NCBI GenBank assembly: GCA_016650125.1
Contig: JAENWT010000007.1
Span: 1 to 32,296, forward strand
Length of the DNA stretch: 32,296 nt
From: Thermoleophilia bacterium
GTDB taxonomy: Bacteria; Actinomycetota; Thermoleophilia; Solirubrobacterales; 70-9
Direction of reading: 5' to 3'
Shown: in pieces, positions 15,615-26,724 of the stretch
Numbering within the stretch: position 1 is the first letter of the stretch
Layout of the letters: each line of letters opens with the position of its first letter
Program-made: the position numbers and the translations under genes
Notes under the pieces: model-generated
Seen by the model: the letters and a program-made list of their open reading frames with translations, nothing else
Told to the model about the DNA's origin: nothing
The model's database searches: none

Positions 15615-15671
15615 CTTAGAGGAGAGCGGGGACCATCGGTGCCTGCGAACAGGGACTAACGGAGGGTGGAG

Positions 15672-17939
15672 ATGTCGAAGCTGAAGGTTGGAGTAGTTGC
15701 GTGTTCGATCGTGATCGCGGGCATTGTGGCCACGGTCGCCCAGGCGGCACCGGGAGACACTCTTGGCGTATCGACGCTCGTGCAGCGGATCCTTCCTTCG
15801 GGAGATCCCGGCTATAACACCCTGACCACTGGTGTCGGTGAGGACTACATCGTCCGTGACGGCACCGAAGAGGGCGGCGTCGCCCTCGGAACCGCCGGAG
15901 CCGACCGCGCGACCAAGCGCACCTCCGTGTCCTACTTCGGACAGCTCACAGACTTCCAGCTCGCTGACGAAGAGAGCCCGGCCCGGGTCGAGTTCCTCGA
16001 TTCACAGGGTGGACCCTTCACCTCCGCCTGGCGGACCGCCGAGGCCCTGAATCCGCAGGAAGAGAACGCGATGATCGAGCAAATGAACGCGTTCGCCGCC
16101 AACGCCCCGACCGCCAACGGTGACGGCAGCAAGCCCGGCATGGAATTCGTAGTCAACACCGGTGACATCTCCGACAGCCAGCAGTACAACGAGACGCTTT
16201 GGAACCGCCAGCTGGTCGAGGGTGACATGGTCGACCCCGGCAGTGGTGAGACTCCGCCGGCCCTCGGAACCAACCCGCTCTGCCCGAACTCCCTGACTAT
16301 CGCCGACACCGGCAGCCCGTCTTCCTACACGGGCGTCCAGGACCGTGACGACTGGCCCGCCGCCATCCAGCAGGGCTACTTCTACGACCCCGACGATCCG
16401 ACTTACACGCCGCCCACGGCCACTCCGCTCGTCCCCTACGCCGATGCGCCGGAGTACCCGGGACTCATGAACCGGGCGCAGCAGGCCTTCCAGGCGACCG
16501 GCCTCGACGTGCCGTCCTACATGGTCTTCGGTAACCACGACGGCCTCGTCCAGGGCAATGCCTACGCCAGCGAGCTCTTCAACGAGTTCGCGACAGGCTG
16601 CATGAAGCCGGTGGCTGATGCCGAAGACAACGGCGGCGAGTCAGTGACCTCGCTGTACGCGCTGCTGCTCGACCCCGACCTGACCCAGGCCGACTTCCTG
16701 CAGCTCTACGTCGACAACCCGGATCTCTTCATGGGTGTTCCGCCCGATCCGGACCGTCGCCTGATCAACAAGAAGCAGTACATGGACATTTTCAAGGCCA
16801 ACGGCAAGGACGACGGTCACGGTTTCGACTTCGTCGATGCCGCCACGGCCACCGCCTCGAACGGTTCCGCCGGTTACTACAGCTGGAGCCCGAAGCCGGG
16901 AGTCCGGTACATCACGCTCGATACCCATTCCGAAGGCGGGAAGATCCTCGTCTCCGACAAGGGCAACCTCGACACGCCGCAGTTCAACTGGTACGAAGAC
17001 GAGCTGCAGAAGGCAACCGACAACAACGAAGTTGTCGTGACCTTCTCGCACCACGCCGTCGGCAGCCTGAGCGCCGACGTGCTCGATGAGAACGCGCCCC
17101 AATGCGCCGACGTCGACCCGACCAAGGTGATCGGCTGCGATGCCGACCCGCGCAGCTCGGCACCGATCAAGCTCGAGAACGCGATCAGAGACATGATCCT
17201 CAAGTATCCGAACATGATCGCTTGGGTTGCCGGCCACAGCCACGTCAACGACGTGACTCCGTACAAGAACCCGAACGGTGAAGGTGGCTTCTGGAGCATC
17301 CGCACCGCCGCCCTGGCCGACTGGCCCAAGCAGAACCGCCTGGTCCAGATCTTCGACAACGAGGACGGCAACCTGTCGATCTTCGGCACGCTGATCGATG
17401 AAGCGTCGCCGGTTCCGACTCCCGCCCCCGGCACCAACGCGGCCAGCTTCACTACGGATCAGCTCGCGTCGATCTCACGCGAGGTGGGATACAACGACAG
17501 CCAGAGCGGTGGCCGCGCCTGCGGTGACAATCCCTGCGGGGAAGGCACCGCCGCGGATCGCAACGTCGAGCTCCTGATCAAAGACCCGCGTCGTGACGAG
17601 CCGAACCCGCCGGTCCTCACGGCCAAGATCTCCAAGGTCAAGATCTCGCCGAAGAAGAAGACGCTCAAGGCCGGAAAGAAGACCAAGCTGACCGTCAAGG
17701 TGACGAACTCGGGCACCGCGGCGAAGAAGAACGCCAAGCTCTTCGTGAAGTCTTCGAACGAGCGGGTCAAAGTCAGGAAGAAGATCACGATCAAGTCGAT
17801 CGGCGCCCGCAAGACGGTGAAGATCAAGATCACCGTGCGTGCGAAGTCCAGGGCCAGGGGCAAGGCGAAGATCACCGCCAGCGTCTCCGGCAAGAAGGGC
17901 AGCGCCATCCTGAAGATCAAGGCGAAGAAGAAGCGTTAG
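15672..17939 (+). CDS. Exported metallophosphoesterase, TIGR03767 (PPA1498-like) type, with Lys-rich C-terminal domain
   Basis: 755-residue exported calcineurin-like phosphoesterase. ATG 15672 is preceded by GGAGG at spacing 6, so I prefer it to the GTG two codons upstream. A signal peptide runs to AQA (about 25). Metal motifs are QLTDFQLADEESPAR (D-x-Q in place of the usual D-x-H, as I recall for this subfamily), NTGDISDSQQYNE, GNHD near 288, FSHHAVG near 460 and AGHSHVND near 520. The last about 105 residues (DNA 17620-17936) form a separate beta-rich, lysine-rich domain with KAGKKTKLTVKV and KSSN, also found at the end of the GDPD protein at 25348. The substrate is unknown. Retention in the wall by the cationic tail is inference. 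Confidence 0.85.
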   Translation: MSKLKVGVVACSIVIAGIVATVAQAAPGDTLGVSTLVQRILPSGDPGYNTLTTGVGEDYIVRDGTEEGGVALGTAGADRATKRTSVSYFGQLTDFQLADEESPARVEFLDSQGGPFTSAWRTAEALNPQEENAMIEQMNAFAANAPTANGDGSKPGMEFVVNTGDISDSQQYNETLWNRQLVEGDMVDPGSGETPPALGTNPLCPNSLTIADTGSPSSYTGVQDRDDWPAAIQQGYFYDPDDPTYTPPTATPLVPYADAPEYPGLMNRAQQAFQATGLDVPSYMVFGNHDGLVQGNAYASELFNEFATGCMKPVADAEDNGGESVTSLYALLLDPDLTQADFLQLYVDNPDLFMGVPPDPDRRLINKKQYMDIFKANGKDDGHGFDFVDAATATASNGSAGYYSWSPKPGVRYITLDTHSEGGKILVSDKGNLDTPQFNWYEDELQKATDNNEVVVTFSHHAVGSLSADVLDENAPQCADVDPTKVIGCDADPRSSAPIKLENAIRDMILKYPNMIAWVAGHSHVNDVTPYKNPNGEGGFWSIRTAALADWPKQNRLVQIFDNEDGNLSIFGTLIDEASPVPTPAPGTNAASFTTDQLASISREVGYNDSQSGGRACGDNPCGEGTAADRNVELLIKDPRRDEPNPPVLTAKISKVKISPKKKTLKAGKKTKLTVKVTNSGTAAKKNAKLFVKSSNERVKVRKKITIKSIGARKTVKIKITVRAKSRARGKAKITASVSGKKGSAILKIKAKKKR

Positions 17940-17956
17940 CCGGGAAACCCTGGTCT

Positions 17957-17995
17957 GGCAGTGAAATTGCCCGCTCAGGGACTAATTTCACTGCC
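17957..17995. repeat. Perfect 12-bp inverted repeat between the metallophosphoesterase and HXXEE genes
   Basis: GGCAGTGAAATT (17957-17968) and AATTTCACTGCC (17984-17995) pair perfectly over a 15-nt loop that itself can form CCC/GGG (17970-17972 with 17978-17980). There is no T-tract after it. It ends 31 nt before the next -10 box, so both a terminator and an operator for the HXXEE gene are possible. Confidence 0.55.
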
Positions 17996-18026
17996 GGTCC
18001 GGCGCAGGTCGGTTCGGTCGCGTGAA

Positions 18027-18032
18027 TAGGAT
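18027..18032 (+). promoter_or_regulatory. Candidate -10 box TAGGAT for the HXXEE gene
   Basis: TAGGAT ends six bases before the ATG at 18039, with no ribosome site between, as at several other genes of the window. Confidence 0.42.
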
Positions 18033-18038
18033 CACCCG

Positions 18039-18755
18039 ATGGACATCGACAGTCACTCCTGGGTTCTCTGGGTCGGCGTCATCGCGGCCGCCCTTCATGT
18101 CATCGAGGAGTACTCGGAAGGCTGGATCGCCTGGGCCAACTTCGAGATCGGGCCACGCCTCGGCATCACCTTCACCGAGGGCGACTTTTTCGTCACCAAC
18201 GCGGCGCTGATCTTCATCGCCCTGGCCGGCGCGGCGATCGGCTGGTGGGCACCCGCGGTCAGTCTTGCGGTCCCGGCGCTCTTCGTCATCAACGCCGTCT
18301 TCTTCCACATGCTGCCCAGTGCCCGCGGTGATCGCCTCACACCGGGCACGCTCAGTGCCGTCTTCATCTACCTGCCGGTCGCCGCCTGGATGTTCTGGGC
18401 GGCATCTGAGGACGGCCGGCTCGACTTCGCCACCTTCGTCGGCGCCTTCATCATCGGCGCGGCGATCATGGCCTACCCGCTGGTGGTCCTTGTGCTCAAG
18501 ACGAAGATCGGCTGGGACGAAGCGACAGTCACCGCCGCGACCGGGGAGCGGGATGCGGAAACTGCCCGGAAGGAAGCGTTGGCAGAGATGCGCGCGGCCC
18601 AGGAGCTGCGCGCCGCGACCCCGCCGATGGAAGAACCTGCCGGCGCTGAGGAAGAGGCGCCGCCCGAGCCAGCCGATGACGCCGGAGATGAACCGCACGA
18701 CGACTCAGACGACGAGCCCGGCGAAGACGAAACCGCGGTACTTCCGCACGGCTGA
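18039..18755 (+). CDS. HXXEE domain membrane protein with acidic tail
   Basis: 238 residues with five or six membrane helices up to about residue 155. The defining motif is LHVIEEY (H20, E23, E24) at the end of the first helix, together with NAVFFHMLPS near 90, which matches the conserved His of HXXEE-domain proteins. Function of the family is not established; the conserved His and Glu could bind metal or act catalytically. The last 80 residues are a cytoplasmic coil with Ala/Glu (ETARKEALAEMRAAQELRAA), then a strongly acidic tail (DDSDDEPGEDE) not usual for the family. The stop lies 3 nt from the convergent fumC stop. A 12-bp inverted repeat precedes the promoter. Confidence 0.8.
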   Translation: MDIDSHSWVLWVGVIAAALHVIEEYSEGWIAWANFEIGPRLGITFTEGDFFVTNAALIFIALAGAAIGWWAPAVSLAVPALFVINAVFFHMLPSARGDRLTPGTLSAVFIYLPVAAWMFWAASEDGRLDFATFVGAFIIGAAIMAYPLVVLVLKTKIGWDEATVTAATGERDAETARKEALAEMRAAQELRAATPPMEEPAGAEEEAPPEPADDAGDEPHDDSDDEPGEDETAVLPHG

Positions 18756-18758
18756 CCC

Positions 18759-20084
18759 TCAGGCCTGGTCGTCCCCGTGGGGCCGCGCCATCCTGTTGTG
18801 GTCGAGCGCCTCGGTCAGGATCTCTTCCTCGACGCCGAGCTCGATCGCGACTTCGCGGAGTGCCCGGCCGGAACGAGCCGCTTCGGTGACGATCTCGGTG
18901 GCGCGGTCGTAACCGATGTACGGATTGAGCGCGGTGGCCGTGGCCAGCGTGACCTCGGCGTGGAGCTCGTTGGCCGCGACGTTCGCTTCGATCCCGGAGA
19001 CGCACTTCTCGTCGAGCATGCGGGAGGCCGAAGCAAGGATGTGGATCGAGCCGAGCAGATTGCGGGCGATCAGCGGAACCCGAACATTGAGTTCGAACTG
19101 ACCCTGCGATCCGGCCATGGTGATCGCGGCGTCGTTGCCGACTACCTGGGCGGCGACCTGGATCACGACCTCGGGGATTACCGGGTTGACCTTGCCCGGC
19201 ATGATCGAGGAACCCTTCTGCAGTTCCGGCAGCTGGATCTCGGCGAGCCCGGCGCGCGGGCCCGAGCCCATCAGCGCGAGGTCGTTGGCGATCTTGTTGA
19301 GCGACACGGCGTAGACCTTGAGCGCACCCGAGAGCTCGACCAGCGCGTCGCGGTTGGCCTGGGCCTCGAAGGGGTCGTGCGGCGCCGAGATGCTGAGCCC
19401 GGACTGGTCTTCGAGCAGCTGGCGCACACCGGCGGCGAAGTCGGGGTGGGTGTTGAGGCCCGTGCCGGTGGCGGTGCCGCCCAGCGGGATCTGTCCGACC
19501 CGCTCGAGCGTGGCCGCGATGCGGTCGATGCCGTGGCGGACCTGCGAGGCGTAACCGCCGAACTCCTGCCCCAGGGTGACCGGGACGGCGTCCATCAAGT
19601 GGGTGCGGCCGGCCTTGACGACGTTGCGGAACTCTTCGGCCTTGGCGTCGAGGGCAAGAGCGAGCCCTTGCATCGCCGGGATCAGATCGTTGGTCACTTC
19701 GTCAAGCGCAGCGAGGTGGACCGCGGAAGGGAAAACGTCGTTCGAGGACTGACCCATATTTACGTGGTCGCTGGCGTGGACGCCTTCGCCGGCCAGGTTG
19801 CCGATCACTTCGTTGGTGTTCGTGTGAGAAGAGGTCCCTGAACCGGTCTGGAAGACGTCGACCGGGAACTGCTTGTCGTGTCGGCCGGCGCCGATCTCAT
19901 CGCCGGCCCGGGCGATCTTTTCGGCGATCCCCTCGTCGAGCAGGCCGAGGGCGCCGTTGGTCCGGGCGGCGTTTGCCTTGATCCGTCCCAGCCAGTGGAT
20001 GACCGGCGCCGGGATCGTTTCCCCGGAAACGGGAAAGTTGTCAACGGCCTTGGTGGTCTCAGAACCCCACAGCTGGTCAGTCAA
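18759..20084 (-). CDS. fumC: Class II fumarate hydratase
   Basis: Hydrates fumarate to L-malate in the TCA cycle; iron-independent homotetramer. The 441 residues show the superfamily signature GSSIMPGKVNP (291-301, with catalytic Ser and K298/N300), QTGSGTSS (79-86), SSNDVFPSA (113-121) and GRTHLMDAVPVTLGQEF (159-175). These read like mycobacterial Fum proteins and not like aspartase (MPAKVNP) or argininosuccinate lyase. One deviation is HTNTNEV where NMNTNEV is usual, next to the active site. The frame begins with TTG at 20084, preceded by GAGAGG at spacing 5; an ATG at 20097 is out of frame. Slightly short at the N-terminus. The upstream gap contains a 14-bp inverted repeat. Confidence 0.93.
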   Translation of the reverse strand: MTDQLWGSETTKAVDNFPVSGETIPAPVIHWLGRIKANAARTNGALGLLDEGIAEKIARAGDEIGAGRHDKQFPVDVFQTGSGTSSHTNTNEVIGNLAGEGVHASDHVNMGQSSNDVFPSAVHLAALDEVTNDLIPAMQGLALALDAKAEEFRNVVKAGRTHLMDAVPVTLGQEFGGYASQVRHGIDRIAATLERVGQIPLGGTATGTGLNTHPDFAAGVRQLLEDQSGLSISAPHDPFEAQANRDALVELSGALKVYAVSLNKIANDLALMGSGPRAGLAEIQLPELQKGSSIMPGKVNPVIPEVVIQVAAQVVGNDAAITMAGSQGQFELNVRVPLIARNLLGSIHILASASRMLDEKCVSGIEANVAANELHAEVTLATATALNPYIGYDRATEIVTEAARSGRALREVAIELGVEEEILTEALDHNRMARPHGDDQA

Positions 20085-20133
20085 AGGAGCCTCTCATCGG
20101 TTGATCACGTAAGCAAAGTCTCTCAACAACACG

Positions 20134-20180
20134 TTCTGGAAAGCATTACCCGTCCCATTACCTTGAAATGCTTTCCAGAA
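20134..20180. repeat. Perfect 14-bp inverted repeat between the lipoprotein gene and fumC
   Basis: TTCTGGAAAGCATT (20134-20147) and AATGCTTTCCAGAA (20167-20180) are perfect inverted copies separated by 19 nt. The element lies 6 nt past the lipoprotein stop and 50 nt before the fumC start, both on the minus strand. The following minus-strand bases (CGTGTTGTTGAG) are not a T-run. It is either a terminator for the lipoprotein gene or an operator of fumC. Confidence 0.6.
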
Positions 20181-20186
20181 TGGTCT

Positions 20187-20654
20187 CTAGCCGGATTTGC
20201 TTCCGGCTTCATAACCGGCCTGGTAATGGGCTCGCTTCAGTTCGGAGGCCCGGGACAGCCCGTTTGTGGCGGCCGACTTGACCCGTTCGACGAGGGTCGC
20301 GTGGATGCCGTCGCTGTCTTCGGCGCCCTTCTCGATCGCACCGACCAGGTAGCCGGCGTCGATCGCCGCCTTGACGCCGGCGGGGCCGGGCCGGGAGACG
20401 TCGCCGCCGAGCCCGGTCGCGACTTCGGTGATGTTGGTCCCGAAATTCACGAGGTCGCCCTCGGACTGGTTCCGGACGAGGCAGTCGCTGATCACCGTGC
20501 CGCCGTCGAGCGCCACCGGCTCGGGCGCGTTCCTCAGGGCCGCCGTGATCGAGGCCGGGCTCTCGAGGCAGACGTCCGGAGTGTCGACCTCGGTCTCCGA
20601 GCAACCGAGCAGGAGGACGGCGGAGGCAAAGGTCATGGCGAGGGTGGTGCGCAC
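20187..20654 (-). CDS. Putative lipoprotein of unknown function
   Basis: 155 residues, no family recognised. GTG at 20654 gives VRTTLAMTFASAVLLLGC, a lipoprotein signal peptide with lipobox LLGC and the lipidated cysteine at 18. The GTG is 36 bp from the divergent decarboxylase ATG, and a longer reading would cross that gene. The mature part has a further cysteine pair (VCLES and DCLV) that could form a disulfide, a TALRNAPEPVALDGG stretch and a helical C-terminal half ending in AHYQAGYEAGSKSG. The downstream inverted repeat probably ends the transcript. An outer-face accessory protein is likely, with nothing to suggest its ligand. Confidence 0.75.
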   Translation of the reverse strand: MRTTLAMTFASAVLLLGCSETEVDTPDVCLESPASITAALRNAPEPVALDGGTVISDCLVRNQSEGDLVNFGTNITEVATGLGGDVSRPGPAGVKAAIDAGYLVGAIEKGAEDSDGIHATLVERVKSAATNGLSRASELKRAHYQAGYEAGSKSG

Positions 20655-20678
20655 ATCTGAATCTTCCCACTCATCCCA

Positions 20679-20684
20679 TAGGCT
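20679..20684 (+). promoter_or_regulatory. Candidate -10 box TAGGCT for the decarboxylase operon
   Basis: TAGGCT, a common mycobacterial-type -10 sequence, ends six bases before the ATG at 20691. No Shine-Dalgarno exists in the 36-bp divergent gap. Confidence 0.45.
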
Positions 20685-20690
20685 GCCGCC

Positions 20691-22289
20691 ATGCCTACCG
20701 TGCGCGACGTGACTTACGACCTTTTCCGCAAGCAGGGACTGACGACGATGTTCGGCAATCCCGGTTCGACCGAGCTGCCGATGCTCAAGGATTTCCCGGA
20801 CGACTTCGAGTATGTGCTCGGTCTGCAGGAAGCGGCCGTCGTCGCCATGGCCGACGGCTACGCGCAGATGACCGGCCGACCTGCCCTGGTCAACCTCCAC
20901 ACCGCCCCGGGGCTCGGCAACGCGATGGGCGCGATCTTCAACGCCCAGGCCAACCACTCGCCGGTCGTGATCACGGTCGGCCAGCAGGCCCGCTCGATGG
21001 TGACCATGCAGTCGAACCTGACCAACCGTGACGCGATCCGCGTCCCGCACCCTTACGTCAAGTTCGCTTACGAGCCGCCGCGCGCCGAAGACGTGCCGCT
21101 GGCGATCGCCCACGCGATCCACCTCGCCTCGCTGCCGCCGATGGGCCCGGTCATGGTCTCGCTGCCGATGGACGACTGGGACGTCGAGATGGACGCCTCC
21201 GACGCGCAGAACGTGATCAACCGCAAAGTGACCGGACGGGCGACCGCCGATCCCGAGCAGGTCAAGGGGCTTGCCGAACGCATCAAGTCCGCGAAGAACC
21301 CGATCGCCGTCGCCGGCCCCGACATCGACGCCGCCGACGCCTGGGAAGAGATGGTCGCGCTCTCCGAGAACCAGAACCTCGGCGTCTGGGCCGCACCCGC
21401 CACCGGCGGTGGCCGCCTCGGCTTCCCCGAGAACCATCCTCACTGGCGCGGCGTGCTGCCGCCCGCGGTCGGCCCGGTCGGTGAGACCCTGAAGGACCAC
21501 GACCTGGTGATCGTCGTCGGCTCCTCCGTCTTCGCTTACTACCCGAACATCGCCGGGCCCTTCCTCGCCGAAGGGACCTCGCTGGTCGCGATCACTTCAG
21601 ATCCGGACGAAGCGGCTCGCGCGCCGATGGGCGACGCGATCGTCGCCGACGTCAAGCTGACCCTGACCGCGCTGCTCGAGCACCTCGACGGCACCGAACG
21701 CGACGCGCCGCCGGCCTGGCCGGATCCGACCCGCGTCGAGGACGCCGACCCGCTCAACGCGTCGACGATCCACTCGATCCTGAAAGAAGAGCTGCCGGAG
21801 AACGGCGTGATCGTGCTCGAATCGCCTTCTGGCACCCTGGCCCTGCGCAACCAGCTGCGGATCTCGAGGCCGAGGAGTTACTTCTTCGGCGCCGGTGGCG
21901 GCCTGGGCTTCGGGCTCGGCTCTTCGGTCGGCATCCAGCTCGCCGAGCCCGACCGCCCGGTCGTCTGCGTGCTCGGCGAAGGCTCGGTCCAGTACGCGGT
22001 GGTCGCCTTCTGGACCGCCGTCGCTTACGACGTGCCGGTCACCTTCCTGGTGCTGCGCAACGAGGAGTACGCGATCCTCAAGTGGTTCGCCGAGATCGAA
22101 GGGGTCACCGGCTCCCCTGGCCTCGACCTGCCCGCGCTCGAGTCGGCCAAGATCGCCTCCGGCTACGGCGTCGAGAGCACGATGGTCAAGACCGCTGACG
22201 AGGTCCAGGCGGCCCTGAAAGAAGCGATCGCCGATCCGAAGCCGCGCCTGATCGAAGTCCCGATCCAACCGGGAATGTCACTCTTCTAA
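20691..22289 (+). CDS. Thiamine-diphosphate decarboxylase, benzoylformate decarboxylase-like
   Basis: 532-residue ThDP enzyme, close to benzoylformate decarboxylase (phenylglyoxylate to benzaldehyde and CO2) over its full length. Numbering matches the Pseudomonas enzyme in the first domain: S26 in FGNPGS, E47 in LQEAA (ThDP activation) and H70 in NLHTAPG. Two key sites differ. The position of catalytic His281 is tyrosine (Y284 in VFAYYPN, where the Pseudomonas enzyme has VFRYHQ). The Mg-binding GDGS is GEGS (429-432), and its partner NNGTY is RNEEY with N457 kept. The substrate may therefore be another 2-keto acid. The AARAPMGDAIVAD block is conserved. It is the first gene of an operon with a large FAD/Fe-S dehydrogenase 16 nt downstream. 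Confidence 0.82.
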   Translation: MPTVRDVTYDLFRKQGLTTMFGNPGSTELPMLKDFPDDFEYVLGLQEAAVVAMADGYAQMTGRPALVNLHTAPGLGNAMGAIFNAQANHSPVVITVGQQARSMVTMQSNLTNRDAIRVPHPYVKFAYEPPRAEDVPLAIAHAIHLASLPPMGPVMVSLPMDDWDVEMDASDAQNVINRKVTGRATADPEQVKGLAERIKSAKNPIAVAGPDIDAADAWEEMVALSENQNLGVWAAPATGGGRLGFPENHPHWRGVLPPAVGPVGETLKDHDLVIVVGSSVFAYYPNIAGPFLAEGTSLVAITSDPDEAARAPMGDAIVADVKLTLTALLEHLDGTERDAPPAWPDPTRVEDADPLNASTIHSILKEELPENGVIVLESPSGTLALRNQLRISRPRSYFFGAGGGLGFGLGSSVGIQLAEPDRPVVCVLGEGSVQYAVVAFWTAVAYDVPVTFLVLRNEEYAILKWFAEIEGVTGSPGLDLPALESAKIASGYGVESTMVKTADEVQAALKEAIADPKPRLIEVPIQPGMSLF

Positions 22290-22305
22290 GGCCCAGGAGC
22301 CCGCG

Positions 22306-25233
22306 ATGCCACTGCTCGAGCCCGATGTTCTGAAGATCACGCCGGAGCCGAGCGAACCCTCGGGCGACCGGGCGCCGGAATGGGTCGCGGGCGGCACTCC
22401 GGAGCCGCTGCGCTCCGACCTGATCAGCCTGCTGGGCGAGGACCGCGTCCTGGCCCGCGCGACCGACATCATCCGGTACGCCTCCGACGCGAGCCCGTAC
22501 CGCAAGCTGCCGCAGGTCGTGATCATGGCCCACGACGCCGATGACGTCTCCAAGGTCGTCAAGTTCGGCCGGGAGAACGGGCTGGGCGTCACCTTCCGTT
22601 CCGGCGGGACCAGCCTCAACGGGCAGGGACAGACCGACGGCATCCTCGTCGACACTCGCCGCCACTTCGGCGGCATCGAAGTCCTCGACGGCGGCAAGGC
22701 GGCTTCGATCGGCCCCGGCACCGTGCTCGGCGACGCCAACAAGGTGCTCGCCCCCACCGGCTACAAACTCGGACCCGATCCGGCCTCGACCGACATCGCC
22801 ACGGTCGGCGGCGTGGTCGCCAACAACTCCGGCGGCATGCGCTGTGGCACGAAGTTCGATTCGTATTCGACCGTGACCGCGATGGAGTTCGTTCTCGCCT
22901 CCGGCACCGTCGTCGATTCCTCTGCCGCCGACGCCGAGGAGAAGTTTGCCGACGCCGAGCCGGAACTGGCCGGGGGTCTGATGGAGATCCGCCGCCAGAT
23001 CCTGGCCGACCCCGCTCTCGAGTCCCGGATCCGGCACAAGTTCGAGATCAAGAACACCACCGGCTACCGGCTCTGCGCGTTCCTCGACGGAGACACCCCG
23101 GTCGAGATCATGCGCCGGCTGATGGTCGGCTCCGAAGGCACGCTCGGCTTCATCTCGCGGGTCACTTTCCAGACGGTGAAGCTACCCGTCCGCACCACGC
23201 TCGCCTGGCTCCACTTCCCCGACATCCCGACCGCGGTCGACCCGGTCCCGGACCTGGTCGCGGCAGGCGCGACGGCGGTCGAGCTGATGGTCGCCCCGGC
23301 CCTGATCGTCGCTTCCTGGAACATGCCCGGCGCGCCGCAACAGTGGAAGGAACTCGACCCGGACTCCGCCGCGTTGCTGGTCGAGTTCGGCGGCGACACG
23401 GACGCCGACCTCGACGCTTCCGAAGCCAAGGTCGCGGCGATCCTCGAAGGGCGCGAGCTGATTCGCGAGGTCGCCTTCAGCCGCGACGAAGAAGTGATTG
23501 AACTGAACTGGCGGGTGCGCGAAGGCCTGCACGGCCTGGTCGGCAAGATGAGGCTGCCCGGTACGGCACTGATCGTCGAAGACGTCTGTGTCCCGCCCTC
23601 GCGGATCGCCGAAGGAGCGGTGGAACTGCGTGAGCTGCTGACCGAGCACGGTTTCCTCGGCGGAGTCGCCGGCCACGCCTCCGCCGGCAACCTGCACTTC
23701 ATGCTCACGCCCGACTTCGCGAAGCAGGAGGACCTCGACCGTTACGAAGCCTTCATGACAAAGCTGGTCGACCTCATCTGCAACAAGTACGACGGGTCGC
23801 TCAAGGCCGAGCATGGCACCGGCATCAACATGGCGCCGTACGTCGAGCTCGAGTGGGGCGAGGAGTTGACCGGCCTGATGTGGAAGGTGAAGGAGCTGGC
23901 CGATCCGGACAACGCGCTGAACCCCGGGGTCGTGCTCAACCGCGATCCAGAAGTGCACCTCCAGGACCTGAAGACTACGCCCCAGATCGAAGAGACGGGC
24001 GGCGCCAACACCTGCGTCGAGTGCGGCTTCTGCGAGCCGGTCTGCCCGAGCCGCCACCTGACGACAACGCCGCGCCAGCGGATCGTGCTGCGCCGGGAGA
24101 TGGTCCGACAGGGCGAGGACACCGAACTGCGAAAAGTCCTGCTCGAGGAGTACGAGTACGACGCGCTCCAGACCTGCGCCGTCGACGGCTCGTGCCTGCT
24201 CGTCTGCCCGGTCGGGATCGACACCGGCGCCTTCGTCAAGGGATTCCGCGCCGAGCAGAACACTCCGGCCGCCGAGAAGATGGCCCTGCGTGCCGCGAGC
24301 CGATGGGACCGGGTCGAAAAGCTTTCCCGCTCGGGCCTCAGGCTCGGCAACGCGATTTCGAAGGTCGTCTCCGACGGCCCGATGCGCGGGCTGACCAAGG
24401 CCGCCCGCGCGGTCGCCAGCAAGGATCTGGTCCCCGAGTGGGGCGACAAGATGCCGCCGGCCGCCTCACCCAAGCTTCCCGAGACGACCTCCCACGGAGC
24501 CGCCGCGGTCTACATGCCGGCCTGTATCAACCGCATGTTGGGCCGCTCGAAAGGTGACGACGGCGACCTGTCGCTGCCCGAAGCGATGGTCGCGGTCTCG
24601 GCCCGCGCCGGGGTGCCGGTCTGGATCCCGGAAGACGTGGAGGGCACCTGCTGTTCGGTGCCGTGGAGCTCGAAGGGCTTCAAGGACGCGCACGCCTTCA
24701 AGGCCAACCAGACGGTCGAGCGTCTCTGGCGCTGGACCGGTGGCGGCACCCTGCCGCTGGTGATCGACGCCTCATCCTGCGGCCACGGCCTCACCGACTT
24801 CGGGCCGGGCGTCCTGACCGAGGAGAACGAAGCCCGCCACCAGGAGATCGAAGTGATCGACTCGATCGCCTGGGCCGAGCAGCATCTGCTGCCCGGACTC
24901 GACATCAAGAAGAAGACCGACTCGGTCACGGTCCACCCGACCTGCTCCGGACGCCACATGGGCCTCGACCGCGCACTCACCCGGATCGCCAACGAGCTGG
25001 CCGATGACGTCCACGTCCCCGACACCGCCACCTGCTGCGGCTTCGCCGGCGACCGCGGCTTCCTCCACCCGGAACTGACCGCGAGCGCGACCAGCCAGGA
25101 AGCGATCGAGGTCAGGGCCAATCCGACGACCAGCCACATCTCCTCCAACCGCACCTGCGAGGTCGGCATGGAGCGAGCAACCGGCGAGCCCTACGGATCA
25201 TTCATCTACCTGCTGGAAGAACTCAGCCGCTAG
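22306..25233 (+). CDS. FAD-linked oxidase / Fe-S fusion, D-2-hydroxyacid (lactate/glycolate type) dehydrogenase
   Basis: 975-residue fusion of a GlcD/D-lactate-dehydrogenase-like flavoprotein with a GlcF-like iron-sulfur protein. It should oxidise a D-2-hydroxy acid to the 2-keto acid and pass electrons to the respiratory chain. The FAD (PCMH) domain spans about 60-260 with FRSGGTSLNGQ near 98-108, DPASTDIATVGGVVANNSGG and GSEGTLGF. The FAD-oxidase C-terminal domain runs to about 545 (HGTGINMAP, NPGVVLN). Two cysteine clusters follow, CVECGFCEPVCPS (about 567-580) and CAVDGSCLLVCPVG (about 624-637). Paired CCG-type segments come after (TCCSVPW, HPTCSGRH, TCCGFAGDRG, about 780-915). YdiJ-type D-2-hydroxyglutarate or Dld-II-type lactate dehydrogenases are built this way. 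The operon with the decarboxylase suggests a substrate such as mandelate. Confidence 0.88.
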   Translation: MPLLEPDVLKITPEPSEPSGDRAPEWVAGGTPEPLRSDLISLLGEDRVLARATDIIRYASDASPYRKLPQVVIMAHDADDVSKVVKFGRENGLGVTFRSGGTSLNGQGQTDGILVDTRRHFGGIEVLDGGKAASIGPGTVLGDANKVLAPTGYKLGPDPASTDIATVGGVVANNSGGMRCGTKFDSYSTVTAMEFVLASGTVVDSSAADAEEKFADAEPELAGGLMEIRRQILADPALESRIRHKFEIKNTTGYRLCAFLDGDTPVEIMRRLMVGSEGTLGFISRVTFQTVKLPVRTTLAWLHFPDIPTAVDPVPDLVAAGATAVELMVAPALIVASWNMPGAPQQWKELDPDSAALLVEFGGDTDADLDASEAKVAAILEGRELIREVAFSRDEEVIELNWRVREGLHGLVGKMRLPGTALIVEDVCVPPSRIAEGAVELRELLTEHGFLGGVAGHASAGNLHFMLTPDFAKQEDLDRYEAFMTKLVDLICNKYDGSLKAEHGTGINMAPYVELEWGEELTGLMWKVKELADPDNALNPGVVLNRDPEVHLQDLKTTPQIEETGGANTCVECGFCEPVCPSRHLTTTPRQRIVLRREMVRQGEDTELRKVLLEEYEYDALQTCAVDGSCLLVCPVGIDTGAFVKGFRAEQNTPAAEKMALRAASRWDRVEKLSRSGLRLGNAISKVVSDGPMRGLTKAARAVASKDLVPEWGDKMPPAASPKLPETTSHGAAAVYMPACINRMLGRSKGDDGDLSLPEAMVAVSARAGVPVWIPEDVEGTCCSVPWSSKGFKDAHAFKANQTVERLWRWTGGGTLPLVIDASSCGHGLTDFGPGVLTEENEARHQEIEVIDSIAWAEQHLLPGLDIKKKTDSVTVHPTCSGRHMGLDRALTRIANELADDVHVPDTATCCGFAGDRGFLHPELTASATSQEAIEVRANPTTSHISSNRTCEVGMERATGEPYGSFIYLLEELSR

Positions 25234-25262
25234 CGCATCGATTCGGGTTTACGGGTTTTTCA

Positions 25263-25291
25263 TCTACAGACCCACGTCGAGTCCCTACAAT
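25263..25291 (+). promoter_or_regulatory. Candidate promoter of the GDPD-like gene
   Basis: TCTACA (25263-25268, four of six to TTGACA) and TACAAT (25286-25291, five of six to TATAAT) are 17 bp apart. The start would leave a leader of about 50 nt with AAGGGG shortly before the ATG at 25348. Confidence 0.45.
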
Positions 25292-25347
25292 CCGACGACT
25301 GGGGATTCTTGTCATTTCGATCCCGCCAAAGGGAACAAGGGGAATAA

Positions 25348-26724
25348 ATGAGGAACCGCATCACCATCGCCACCTTCTTCGCACTGCTCGTCGGCCTATT
25401 TGCCGTAAGCACCGCTTCCGCCGCGTCACCTTCGGACCGCGCGCCGATTCCGCCGCCGACCGACTACTGGCAGGACCAGGGCTTCATCCTGATGGCCCAT
25501 CAGGGTGGCGAGTGGGACTTCCCGCCGAACACGATGTTCGCTTACAAGTCAGCGATGGCGCTCGGCACCGACATGATCGATATGGACGCCTACGTAACCC
25601 AGGACGGTCACATCGTGCTTTCTCACGACCTTGATGCGAATAACAATTCTGAAGCGCCCGACGACACTCCAATCAATGAGCAAACCCTGGCCCAGCTCAA
25701 AGCCCTTGATTTCGCGTTCAAGTGGAGTCCGCACGACGGATCGAGCACCACGCCCTTCAAGGGCGTGGCCACGGGCAACGTTCCTCCTCCCTACGGTTTC
25801 ACCGCCGAGGACTTCCAGATCCCGACCTTCGACGAGGTTCTCGACGAGTTTCCGAACACGCCGATCAACATCGAGCTGAAGGCTGTCGATGGCGTTGACG
25901 AGCTGGACACTGCAGCAAAGATGGATGAAATCCTCGGAGCGCACCCCGGTCGCGAAGAGGACGTCATCATCAACTCCTTCGGCCAGTCAATGCTTGAGAA
26001 GATGCACGCCGCCCGGCCCGAGCACCTCGCCTTCGGCGGCAGCCTTGACGGCACCGTCGACTACATCAGCGGCGAGCCGATCGTGCCCACCCCGGTAGCA
26101 GTCGAGCCGCCAGATCAGGTCAAGGTCATCGATAACCCTGACCCGCAAGAAGATGTATGGCTGCGTTCGGTTCCTGTCCTCAAGCCATGGGCCGACCACG
26201 ACGGCTACAAGATCTTCGTCTGGGGATCGGATCACGATCCGATGCAGGACACGCCCGGGTTCTACGAGACGCTGATCAACGAAGGAGCGGATTCGTACAA
26301 CACCCCGGACCCGATCGCCCTCGCCGCGTACCTCTGTACGGCAGGCATCGCCAGGCCCGACGGCAGCGCCAGGTGCAATGCGCAAAAGGCAGCAGTGAGC
26401 AAGGTGGCCTTTGGCGCCAAAAAGGGCCAGATCAAGGCCGGCAAGAAGACCAAGGTGACAATCAAGGTCTCCGCAAAGAACGACGGCTTCACTAACAAGG
26501 TGAAGGTCTACCTGAAGTCCTCAAACAAGCAGGTCAGGCTCCAGAAGTTCATTGTGCTGGATCTGCGTCCCGGAAAAACAGTACGAAAGACCGTAAGCGT
26601 CAAAGCTACTGGCAAAGCCAAAGGCACGGCAAAGCTGACAGCCACCGTTGGTAAGAAGAAGGCTTACTCAGTACTCAAGGTCAAGGCAAAGAAGGGCAAG
26701 ACCGGCTCGGCTTCCGGCAAGTAG
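25348..26724 (+). CDS. Exported glycerophosphodiester phosphodiesterase-like protein with Lys-rich C-terminal domain
   Basis: 458-residue exported TIM-barrel protein related to GDPD, which splits glycerophosphodiesters to glycerol-3-phosphate and an alcohol. The signal peptide ends at ASA (about 25). The active-site frame is recognisable but altered: H51 is kept but the usual following Arg is Q52, PENT reads PPNT (59-62), the metal ExD is DMD (78-80), H93-D94 is kept in LSHD, and the barrel glutamate and lysine in INIELKAVDG are kept. The catalytic histidines and most ligands therefore remain, while the phosphate-binding Arg is lost, so substrate or activity may differ. About 110 C-terminal residues (from DNA 26390) form a Lys-rich beta domain shared with the metallophosphoesterase at 15672. 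It ends directly against the convergent SDR gene with no gap. Confidence 0.82.
   Translation: MRNRITIATFFALLVGLFAVSTASAASPSDRAPIPPPTDYWQDQGFILMAHQGGEWDFPPNTMFAYKSAMALGTDMIDMDAYVTQDGHIVLSHDLDANNNSEAPDDTPINEQTLAQLKALDFAFKWSPHDGSSTTPFKGVATGNVPPPYGFTAEDFQIPTFDEVLDEFPNTPINIELKAVDGVDELDTAAKMDEILGAHPGREEDVIINSFGQSMLEKMHAARPEHLAFGGSLDGTVDYISGEPIVPTPVAVEPPDQVKVIDNPDPQEDVWLRSVPVLKPWADHDGYKIFVWGSDHDPMQDTPGFYETLINEGADSYNTPDPIALAAYLCTAGIARPDGSARCNAQKAAVSKVAFGAKKGQIKAGKKTKVTIKVSAKNDGFTNKVKVYLKSSNKQVRLQKFIVLDLRPGKTVRKTVSVKATGKAKGTAKLTATVGKKKAYSVLKVKAKKGKTGSASGK

What the first reader, a model, noticed from the sequence alone, without database searches (positions are those of the whole stretch)
15672..26724. 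Two unrelated exported hydrolases share a Lys-rich C-terminal domain
The metallophosphoesterase (end at 17939) and the GDPD-like protein (end at 26724) have different catalytic domains but the same type of tail of about 105 residues. Both tails contain KAGKKTK followed by a TxKV strand, then a KSSN turn, a GKTV/RKTVK strand, an AKGxAK/ARGKAK turn and a final LKxKAKK. The tail is an Ig-like or CARDB-like module with a very high lysine content. Both genes also have leaders of about 50 nt and good ribosome sites, unlike most of the window. A shared wall-binding module for surface phosphohydrolases is likely.
Basis: partly seen in the sequence, partly recalled or inferred. Interest (0 to 1): 0.55.

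Follow-up and report, generated by a model that had tools for sequence, protein, structure and literature searches.

The report
Cationic C-terminal module on exported proteins
Two unrelated exported enzymes carry the same very positively charged immunoglobulin-like tail, which this bacterial genus has put on the end of many secreted proteins, probably to keep them on the cell surface by charge.

Summary
The metallophosphoesterase (15672-17939) and the GDPD-like protein (25348-26724) share a C-terminal domain of about 110 residues (local score 211, against 58±8.5 in composition-keeping shuffles). It is a CARDB β-sandwich (3idu, Z 12.7) with unusual charge, +38 and +31. It is not special to phosphohydrolases: this genome has 20 strong copies, C-terminal on varied exported heads. 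All 18 genomes of the genus have it; in a phylum sample it rang in 6 of 396, all within the order. CARDB domains elsewhere in the phylum are near neutral or acidic (median -4 per 100 aa, n 29; this genome +24.5, n 18). Orthologous tails keep +31 to +38 while lysine and arginine exchange, so charge looks selected. The genus lacks sortase (0 of 18; order 139 of 232). Best reading: electrostatic retention on the cell surface, working like the cationic wall-binding domain of Lactobacillus S-layer proteins. Ligand unknown; binding untested. New variant of a known kind.

The parts
15661..15665 (+). Shine-Dalgarno-like GGAGG before the ATG at 15672
   Evidence: read
15672..17939 (+). exported metallophosphoesterase, 755 aa: signal peptide, acidic catalytic head (GD, GNHD, GHSH motifs by eye), cationic CARDB tail
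   Evidence: PF00149 25.4 bits, cut-off 21.5; TIGR03767 278.1 bits, below its cut-off of 330.75
15672..15749 (+). N-terminal signal peptide (MSKLKVGVVACSIVIAGIVATVAQAA), cleavage site by eye
   Evidence: sequence; classed exported
17601..17936 (+). tail 1: C-terminal cationic CARDB domain, 112 aa, 32 K, 7 R, 1 acidic residue, net +38
25338..25342 (+). Shine-Dalgarno-like run before the ATG at 25348
   Evidence: read
25348..26724 (+). exported GDPD-like phosphodiesterase, 458 aa: signal peptide, acidic head, cationic CARDB-type tail
   Evidence: PF03009 65.2 bits, cut-off 23.6
25348..25422 (+). N-terminal signal peptide (MRNRITIATFFALLVGLFAVSTASA), cleavage site by eye
   Evidence: sequence; classed exported
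26377..26721 (+). tail 2: C-terminal cationic CARDB-type domain, 115 aa, 30 K, 3 R, 2 acidic residues, net +31
   Evidence: CARDB 15.0-18.5 bits, below the cut-off of 22.7; hit of the tail profile at E 8.7e-24 (tail 2 is one of the 17 rows of that profile) and of tail 1 alone at E 1.3e-14

Best explanation
The tail is a lineage-specific, supercharged CARDB beta-sandwich used as a mobile C-terminal module that holds Sec-exported proteins on the producer's own cell surface by electrostatic attraction to an anionic envelope component. Shown here: one homologous domain with a high-confidence beta-sandwich model; position at the extreme C-terminus; many unrelated exported heads; near absence of acidic residues; net charge kept while K and R exchange; expansion in one genus that lacks sortase. 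Inferred: that the charge binds something, that this is the cell's own envelope, and that it stands in for covalent anchoring. The ligand is open: LCP-type ligases, which attach polymers to the wall (recalled), are present, but no CDP-glycerol-type teichoic-acid polymerase was found, so a classical glycerol-phosphate wall teichoic acid is not supported.
For: 20 strong copies in this genome; C-terminal in every such row printed; 44 of 49 judged ORFs with an N-terminal hydrophobic segment; 44 Pfam families among 55 heads. CARDB elsewhere in the phylum: median -4 per 100 aa, maximum +10, n 29; this genome: median +24.5, n 18; of 14 C-terminal ones 13 are +19 to +37 and the one acidic case (-17, L013) sits on a protein with an N-terminal transmembrane stretch. 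Ten metallophosphoesterase orthologues keep +31 to +38 with K/(K+R) from 0.23 to 0.83. More distant orthologues without this domain include six with a different basic C-terminus. Exported proteins end in +15 or more in 9 of 38 (own) and 10 of 56 (G009), cytoplasmic in 6 of 143 and 2 of 165. Sortase 0 of 18 in the genus, 139 of 232 in the order. LCP in 21 of 21 genomes. Parallel: the teichoic-acid-binding domain of Lactobacillus SlpA has a strongly positive cleft (PMC11181022, passages).
Against: No binding data. The sortase loss is one clade, so it may be coincidence; G022 (12 tails) and G058 (8 tails) have both tail and sortase. No polyglycerol-phosphate polymerase in 13 of 13 genus genomes searched. 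Two CARDB domains near the N-terminus are also moderately basic (+16, +18 per 100 aa). In the own sample 5 of 33 exported proteins have a basic internal window, against 7 of 33 at the C-terminus, so C-terminal placement of charge is weak there (G009: 2 against 10 of 49). The K/R counts come from a profile built on K-rich tails.
Confidence: 0.55

Rival explanations
1. The tail binds anionic material outside the cell (extracellular DNA, exopolysaccharide, other cells), so that enzymes are held in a matrix and not on the producer's own wall.
For: The same charge evidence. Many heads are adhesin-like or repeat proteins (FG-GAP, NHL, Big_13, PKD).
Against: Nothing in the calls separates own surface from outside matrix. 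Intracellular-type metabolic heads are absent, but that fits both.
Confidence: 0.22
2. The tail is an ordinary Ig-like spacer or stability domain, and its charge follows from composition drift and has no binding role.
For: CARDB is a common accessory domain; tails vary a lot in sequence (mean column identity 39%).
Against: Lysine is about 3% in the heads and 26-29% in the tails of the same genes; charge is kept while K and R exchange; CARDB elsewhere in the phylum is not basic.
Confidence: 0.12
3. The tail is a C-terminal sorting signal read by a dedicated export or attachment machine and perhaps cut off, like the CTD of the type IX secretion system.
For: One C-terminal Ig-like domain on many unrelated exported proteins is the same layout; weak NCBIfam matches to a PorU-related protein and to MXAN_5808.
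Against: Those NCBIfam scores are far below cut-off (19.5 of 450 and 21.6 of 661 bits). No nearly invariant feature apart from the NxG turn. A second cationic domain type takes the same place on other proteins, which a specific receptor would hardly accept.
Confidence: 0.08

Closest known systems
CARDB, Pfam PF07705 (solved: PF1109 domain, PDB 3idu / 2kl6)
   Same: Profile match for tail 1, N-x-G turn, fold: Z 12.7, rmsd 2.4, 98 residues
   Different: Strongly cationic and C-terminal here; CARDB elsewhere in the phylum has a median of -4 per 100 aa. The title of 3idu names bound di-metal ions; the tails have almost no acidic residues, so metal binding of that kind is unlikely (inference)
Teichoic-acid-binding (TAB/SLAP-type) domain of Lactobacillus S-layer proteins
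   Same: Works like it, if the reading is right: cationic C-terminal module for non-covalent attachment (PMC11181022, passages)
   Different: No Pfam match to that family at E up to 1; the reported YxY....KxxN motif is not there as a whole (a KxxN occurs in the KSSN tails only); wall-polymer ligand not shown
Other non-covalent surface modules (GW, LysM, SLH, CWB2, choline-binding)
   Same: Surface retention of exported proteins; PMC12445088 also cites a charge interaction between the C-terminal repeats of PspA and the wall (passages)
   Different: None of these matched the tails at E up to 1 in Pfam
Sortase / LPXTG anchoring
   Same: C-terminal address on exported proteins
   Different: No hydrophobic segment or LPXTG at the end of either protein (sequence); no sortase in the genus

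Membership tests
CARDB (PF07705) | Pfam score over the curated cut-off (22.7 bits), tail 1 | tested here: met
   23.3 bits in the whole protein, 28.0 as isolated tail
CARDB (PF07705) | Pfam score over the curated cut-off (22.7 bits), tail 2 | tested here: not met
   15.0 and 18.5 bits. Tail 2 is therefore called CARDB-type only, through its homology to tail 1
CARDB (PF07705) | Ig-like beta-sandwich fold like 3idu / 2kl6 | tested here: met
   model pLDDT 93.5; 3idu Z 12.7, rmsd 2.4, 98 aligned, tied within one unit with other Ig-like domains; TM 0.76
CARDB (PF07705) | Role in adhesion or surface attachment | not testable with these tools
   needs binding experiments
SLAP / TAB domain of Lactobacillus (PF03217) | Pfam profile match | tested here: not met
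   absent from the families listed at E up to 1 for both proteins and both tails
SLAP / TAB domain of Lactobacillus (PF03217) | Cationic module on several exported proteins | tested here: met
SLAP / TAB domain of Lactobacillus (PF03217) | Binding to teichoic acid | not testable with these tools
   PF04464 found in 0 of 13 genus genomes, which makes a classical polymer less likely
Sortase-anchored proteins | Sortase in the genome | tested here: not met
   0 of 18 genus genomes; controls ring as expected
Type IX secretion CTD | Match to the known CTD families | tested here: inconclusive
   only weak NCBIfam matches to other parts of that system; no dedicated search for the machinery was made
TIGR03767 metallophosphoesterase (head 1) | Score over NCBIfam cut-off (330.75 bits) | tested here: not met
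   278.1 bits; a relative, not a member
GDPD, PF03009 (head 2) | Score over Pfam cut-off (23.6 bits) | tested here: met
   65.2 bits

The most novel reading that the evidence does not exclude
The genus of Solirubrobacterales bacterium 67-14 has given up sortase and anchors exported proteins with a fold-independent electrostatic code: whatever beta-sandwich is last in the chain (CARDB, the Pfam-less domain on S15 hydrolases, others) is supercharged to about +20 to +40 with hardly an acidic residue, and that charge, not a motif, is the address.
Probability: 0.3. Interest if true: 0.72.

Novelty: new variant of a known kind. Interest (0 to 1): 0.52.

Why it matters
How monoderm bacteria without sortase keep many different enzymes at the surface is poorly described outside model species (my view; no search was made on this point alone). 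A natural family of supercharged domains, with neutral or acidic homologues in related phyla members as ready controls and with K-rich and R-rich orthologues, makes charge-only anchoring directly testable. It also warns annotators: 'CARDB' on a protein of this genus says something about place, not about the enzyme.

Tried and rejected
Chance similarity of two lysine-rich tails: rejected by composition-keeping shuffles.

A module special to phosphohydrolases: rejected by the heads in the own and related genomes.

A general property of CARDB: rejected, since 29 domains from other genomes of the phylum are near neutral or acidic (these are best-scoring hits, not a random sample, and three of the 29 are from the same order).

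Classical glycerol-phosphate teichoic acid as ligand: not supported (PF04464 in 0 of 13 genus genomes); LCP ligases are there (21 of 21).

Is the second cationic domain (on S15-type hydrolases) a CARDB too? Not settled: with 4 sequences hhalign gave 6%, with 26 it gave 65%, E 6e-5; no Pfam family over its cut-off; best structural Z 8.0, to a GH3 enzyme; no CARDB chain was among the 50 rows shown there.

Gene calling on G040 failed the first time, at high G+C; it was repeated with seeded codon weights and only that result is used. The export call is a crude hydrophobicity rule. Some proteins classed cytoplasmic look exported or spurious when read; counts are given as the rule gave them.

Literature: no paper with CARDB + cell wall + C-terminal domain + lysine-rich, Solirubrobacterales + lysine-rich or Thermoleophilia + sortase; six with CARDB domain + cell surface, of which I read passages of PMC8416519 and only the listing of the rest; five with CARDB + Actinobacteria + lysine, judged off topic from the listing; five with Solirubrobacterales + 67-14 + activated sludge, listing only, not used. 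PMC5817068, PMC11181022 and PMC12445088: passages only. PMC5817068 says evidence for wall binding by the SLAP domain was still needed. Any statement that this is not in print rests on these open-access searches alone. That B. subtilis GlpQ and PhoD degrade wall teichoic acid is recalled; listing only.

Rows dropped: of 26 metallophosphoesterase relatives one could not be read through and was left out; only L060-L068 entered the charge comparison. Of 61 tails, 12 were not judged for signal peptides (7 N-truncated with none seen, 5 with short heads); the 5 judged negative look like fragments. One of the 44 positives (L047) is itself N-truncated and its segment may not be a signal peptide. The printed rows were cut in the middle by the output limit. 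Weaker profile hits (below 25 bits) were left out of the 61; among them are internal DUF11-like domains that are not basic.
Full report
What is there. The window holds two separate genes, each coding for an exported protein: a metallophosphoesterase at 15672-17939 and a GDPD-like phosphodiesterase at 25348-26724. Pfam gives PF00149 and PF03009 for the heads; the first is a relative of TIGR03767 below that model's cut-off. The catalytic parts do not resemble each other (score 38). The last 112 and 115 residues do: 41% identity and local score 211, against a mean of 58.4 and a maximum of 97 in 5000 shuffles that keep composition. The tails carry +38 and +31, the heads -53 and -37.

What the domain is. 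CARDB is the best Pfam match to both tails and passes its cut-off for the first. An alignment of 59 tails has one nearly invariant feature, the N-x-G turn. AlphaFold2 gives an all-beta model with pLDDT 93.5. Among the solved structures compared, the CARDB domain of PF1109 (3idu) ranks first by Z (12.7, rmsd 2.4, 98 residues), tied within one unit with several other Ig-like domains. The best sequence match of the profile is the C-terminal part of a Trueperella GH20 enzyme.

How far it spreads. With a profile of 17 own-genome tails, this genome gives 28 hits at E up to 0.01 and 20 at E up to 1e-10, the 17 among them. The heads differ: FG-GAP, NHL, Calx-beta, a CSLREA-like protein, four tandem paralogues on contig C6 and a protein that reads like a PI-PLC-type phosphodiesterase (my readings; the last has no Pfam match). 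Of 61 genomes around the own one, all 18 of the same genus have 2 to 37 hits, while the other genera of the family have 0 to 3 apart from G022 with 12, and one genome of another family, G058, has 8. In the order 60 of 232 genomes ring at 1e-6; in the phylum sample 6 of 396 at 1e-8, all in the order. Contig C1 of genus member G009 has the same length, 368,491, as MKST01000001.1 of 'Solirubrobacterales bacterium 67-14'; that is how I name the genus. Across 55 heads from the genus, 44 Pfam families match.

When the tail was added. Relatives of the metallophosphoesterase in named genomes split in two. Nine close ones (L060-L068, 57-62% identity) all carry the tail. More distant ones either stop after the catalytic part (for example L070, L075, L076) or end in a different stretch that is also basic (L071 +44, L072 +36, L077 +52, L078 and L079 +29, L081 +36; lengths 102 to 382 aa, so these are not per 100 residues). 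Actinobacterial relatives L082-L084 have no such tail.

Charge, not lysine. In the window's protein and the nine orthologues the tail stays at +31 to +38 although K/(K+R) runs from 0.23 to 0.83; sites that are K or R in the window's protein stay basic in 72% of cells, while other tail sites stay identical in 49%. Over 61 tails, K and R counts are anticorrelated (-0.58 own, -0.67 others) and acidic residues almost absent, with the caveat that the profile that found them was built on K-rich tails. The contrast that does not depend on this profile is CARDB itself: 29 domains found with the Pfam model in other genomes of the phylum have a median of -4 per 100 aa and a maximum of +10, against +24.5 for 18 in this genome. 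The only acidic C-terminal CARDB of this genome (-17 per 100 aa, L013) is on a protein with an N-terminal transmembrane stretch. The counter-example also stands: two CARDB domains near the N-terminus of other exported proteins are moderately basic, +16 and +18.

A wider habit. In samples of about 400 kb, proteins classed as exported end in a basic 100 residues (+15 or more) more often than cytoplasmic ones: own genome 9 of 38 against 6 of 143, G009 10 of 56 against 2 of 165, G040 (another family of the order) 4 of 40 against 1 of 144, G305 (same class, outside the order) 6 of 43 against 4 of 144; not significantly in G020, 3 of 51 against 2 of 156; and none in G242 (same phylum), 0 of 30 against 0 of 187. 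At +20 or more the genus has 17 of 94, the two other genera of the order 4 of 91, and the two genomes outside it 4 of 73. A second C-terminal domain, without a Pfam family over its cut-off and found on S15-type hydrolases, is basic too (+13 to +42, again with K and R exchanging) and rings in 14 of 18 genus genomes. So the CARDB tail is one of several basic ends in use.

How it most likely works. A Sec-exported protein with a folded beta-sandwich at its C-terminus, thirty or more positive charges on that domain and hardly a negative one, joined to an acidic enzyme: the simplest function is to hold the enzyme on an anionic surface. That the genus has no sortase (0 of 18; 139 of 232 in the order; 16 of the 32 other family members whose rows were printed, my count) fits a replacement of covalent anchoring, but it is one clade, and two tail-rich genomes outside it do have sortase. 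LCP ligases are present; the CDP-glycerol polymerase family was found in 0 of 13 genus genomes, so the polymer, if it is one, is not a classical glycerol-phosphate teichoic acid. The nearest worked-out parallel is the teichoic-acid-binding domain of Lactobacillus SlpA with its positively charged cleft (PMC11181022, passages). By sequence the tail is no member of that family.

Verdict. Observation confirmed; interpretation partly supported. CARDB is known and cationic wall-binding modules are known; a CARDB turned into a supercharged, mobile C-terminal module in a sortase-less genus is, in the searches made, not described.

Noticed in passing
window 25348-26724: The GDPD head departs from the usual motifs as I recall them: HQGG where HRG is expected, PPNT for PENT, and IDMD for the usual E-x-D. 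Activity or substrate may differ from a standard glycerophosphodiesterase.
   Followed up: no
L136:1346-9466 (own genome contig C2, minus strand): Four tandem genes for S15/AXE1-type hydrolases end in a cationic domain (+27 to +36 in the last 100 aa) with two invariant cysteines and no Pfam family over its cut-off; 14 of 18 genus genomes have it.
   Followed up: partly
L071, L072, L077, L078, L079, L081 (C-termini): Metallophosphoesterase relatives outside the genus end in other, differing basic C-termini, as if the charge were replaceable in kind.
   Followed up: partly
G009 sample, L190 (gene G009_262): A GDPD relative in the 67-14 genome ends in a different basic stretch (+21) that the tail profile does not match.
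   Followed up: no
own genome C6:123800-128000 (L008, L015, L017, L024): Four tandem paralogues of unknown function, all with the tail; no Pfam match for the one head scanned (L035:682-1497).
   Followed up: no
own genome C4:98639-98884 (L013): A protein with an N-terminal transmembrane stretch carries an acidic CARDB at its C-terminus, a natural control.
   Followed up: partly
L166-L185 (G040), L267-L286 (G305): In very G+C-rich relatives, basic C-termini of exported proteins are arginine-rich and not lysine-rich (seen in G305).
   Followed up: partly
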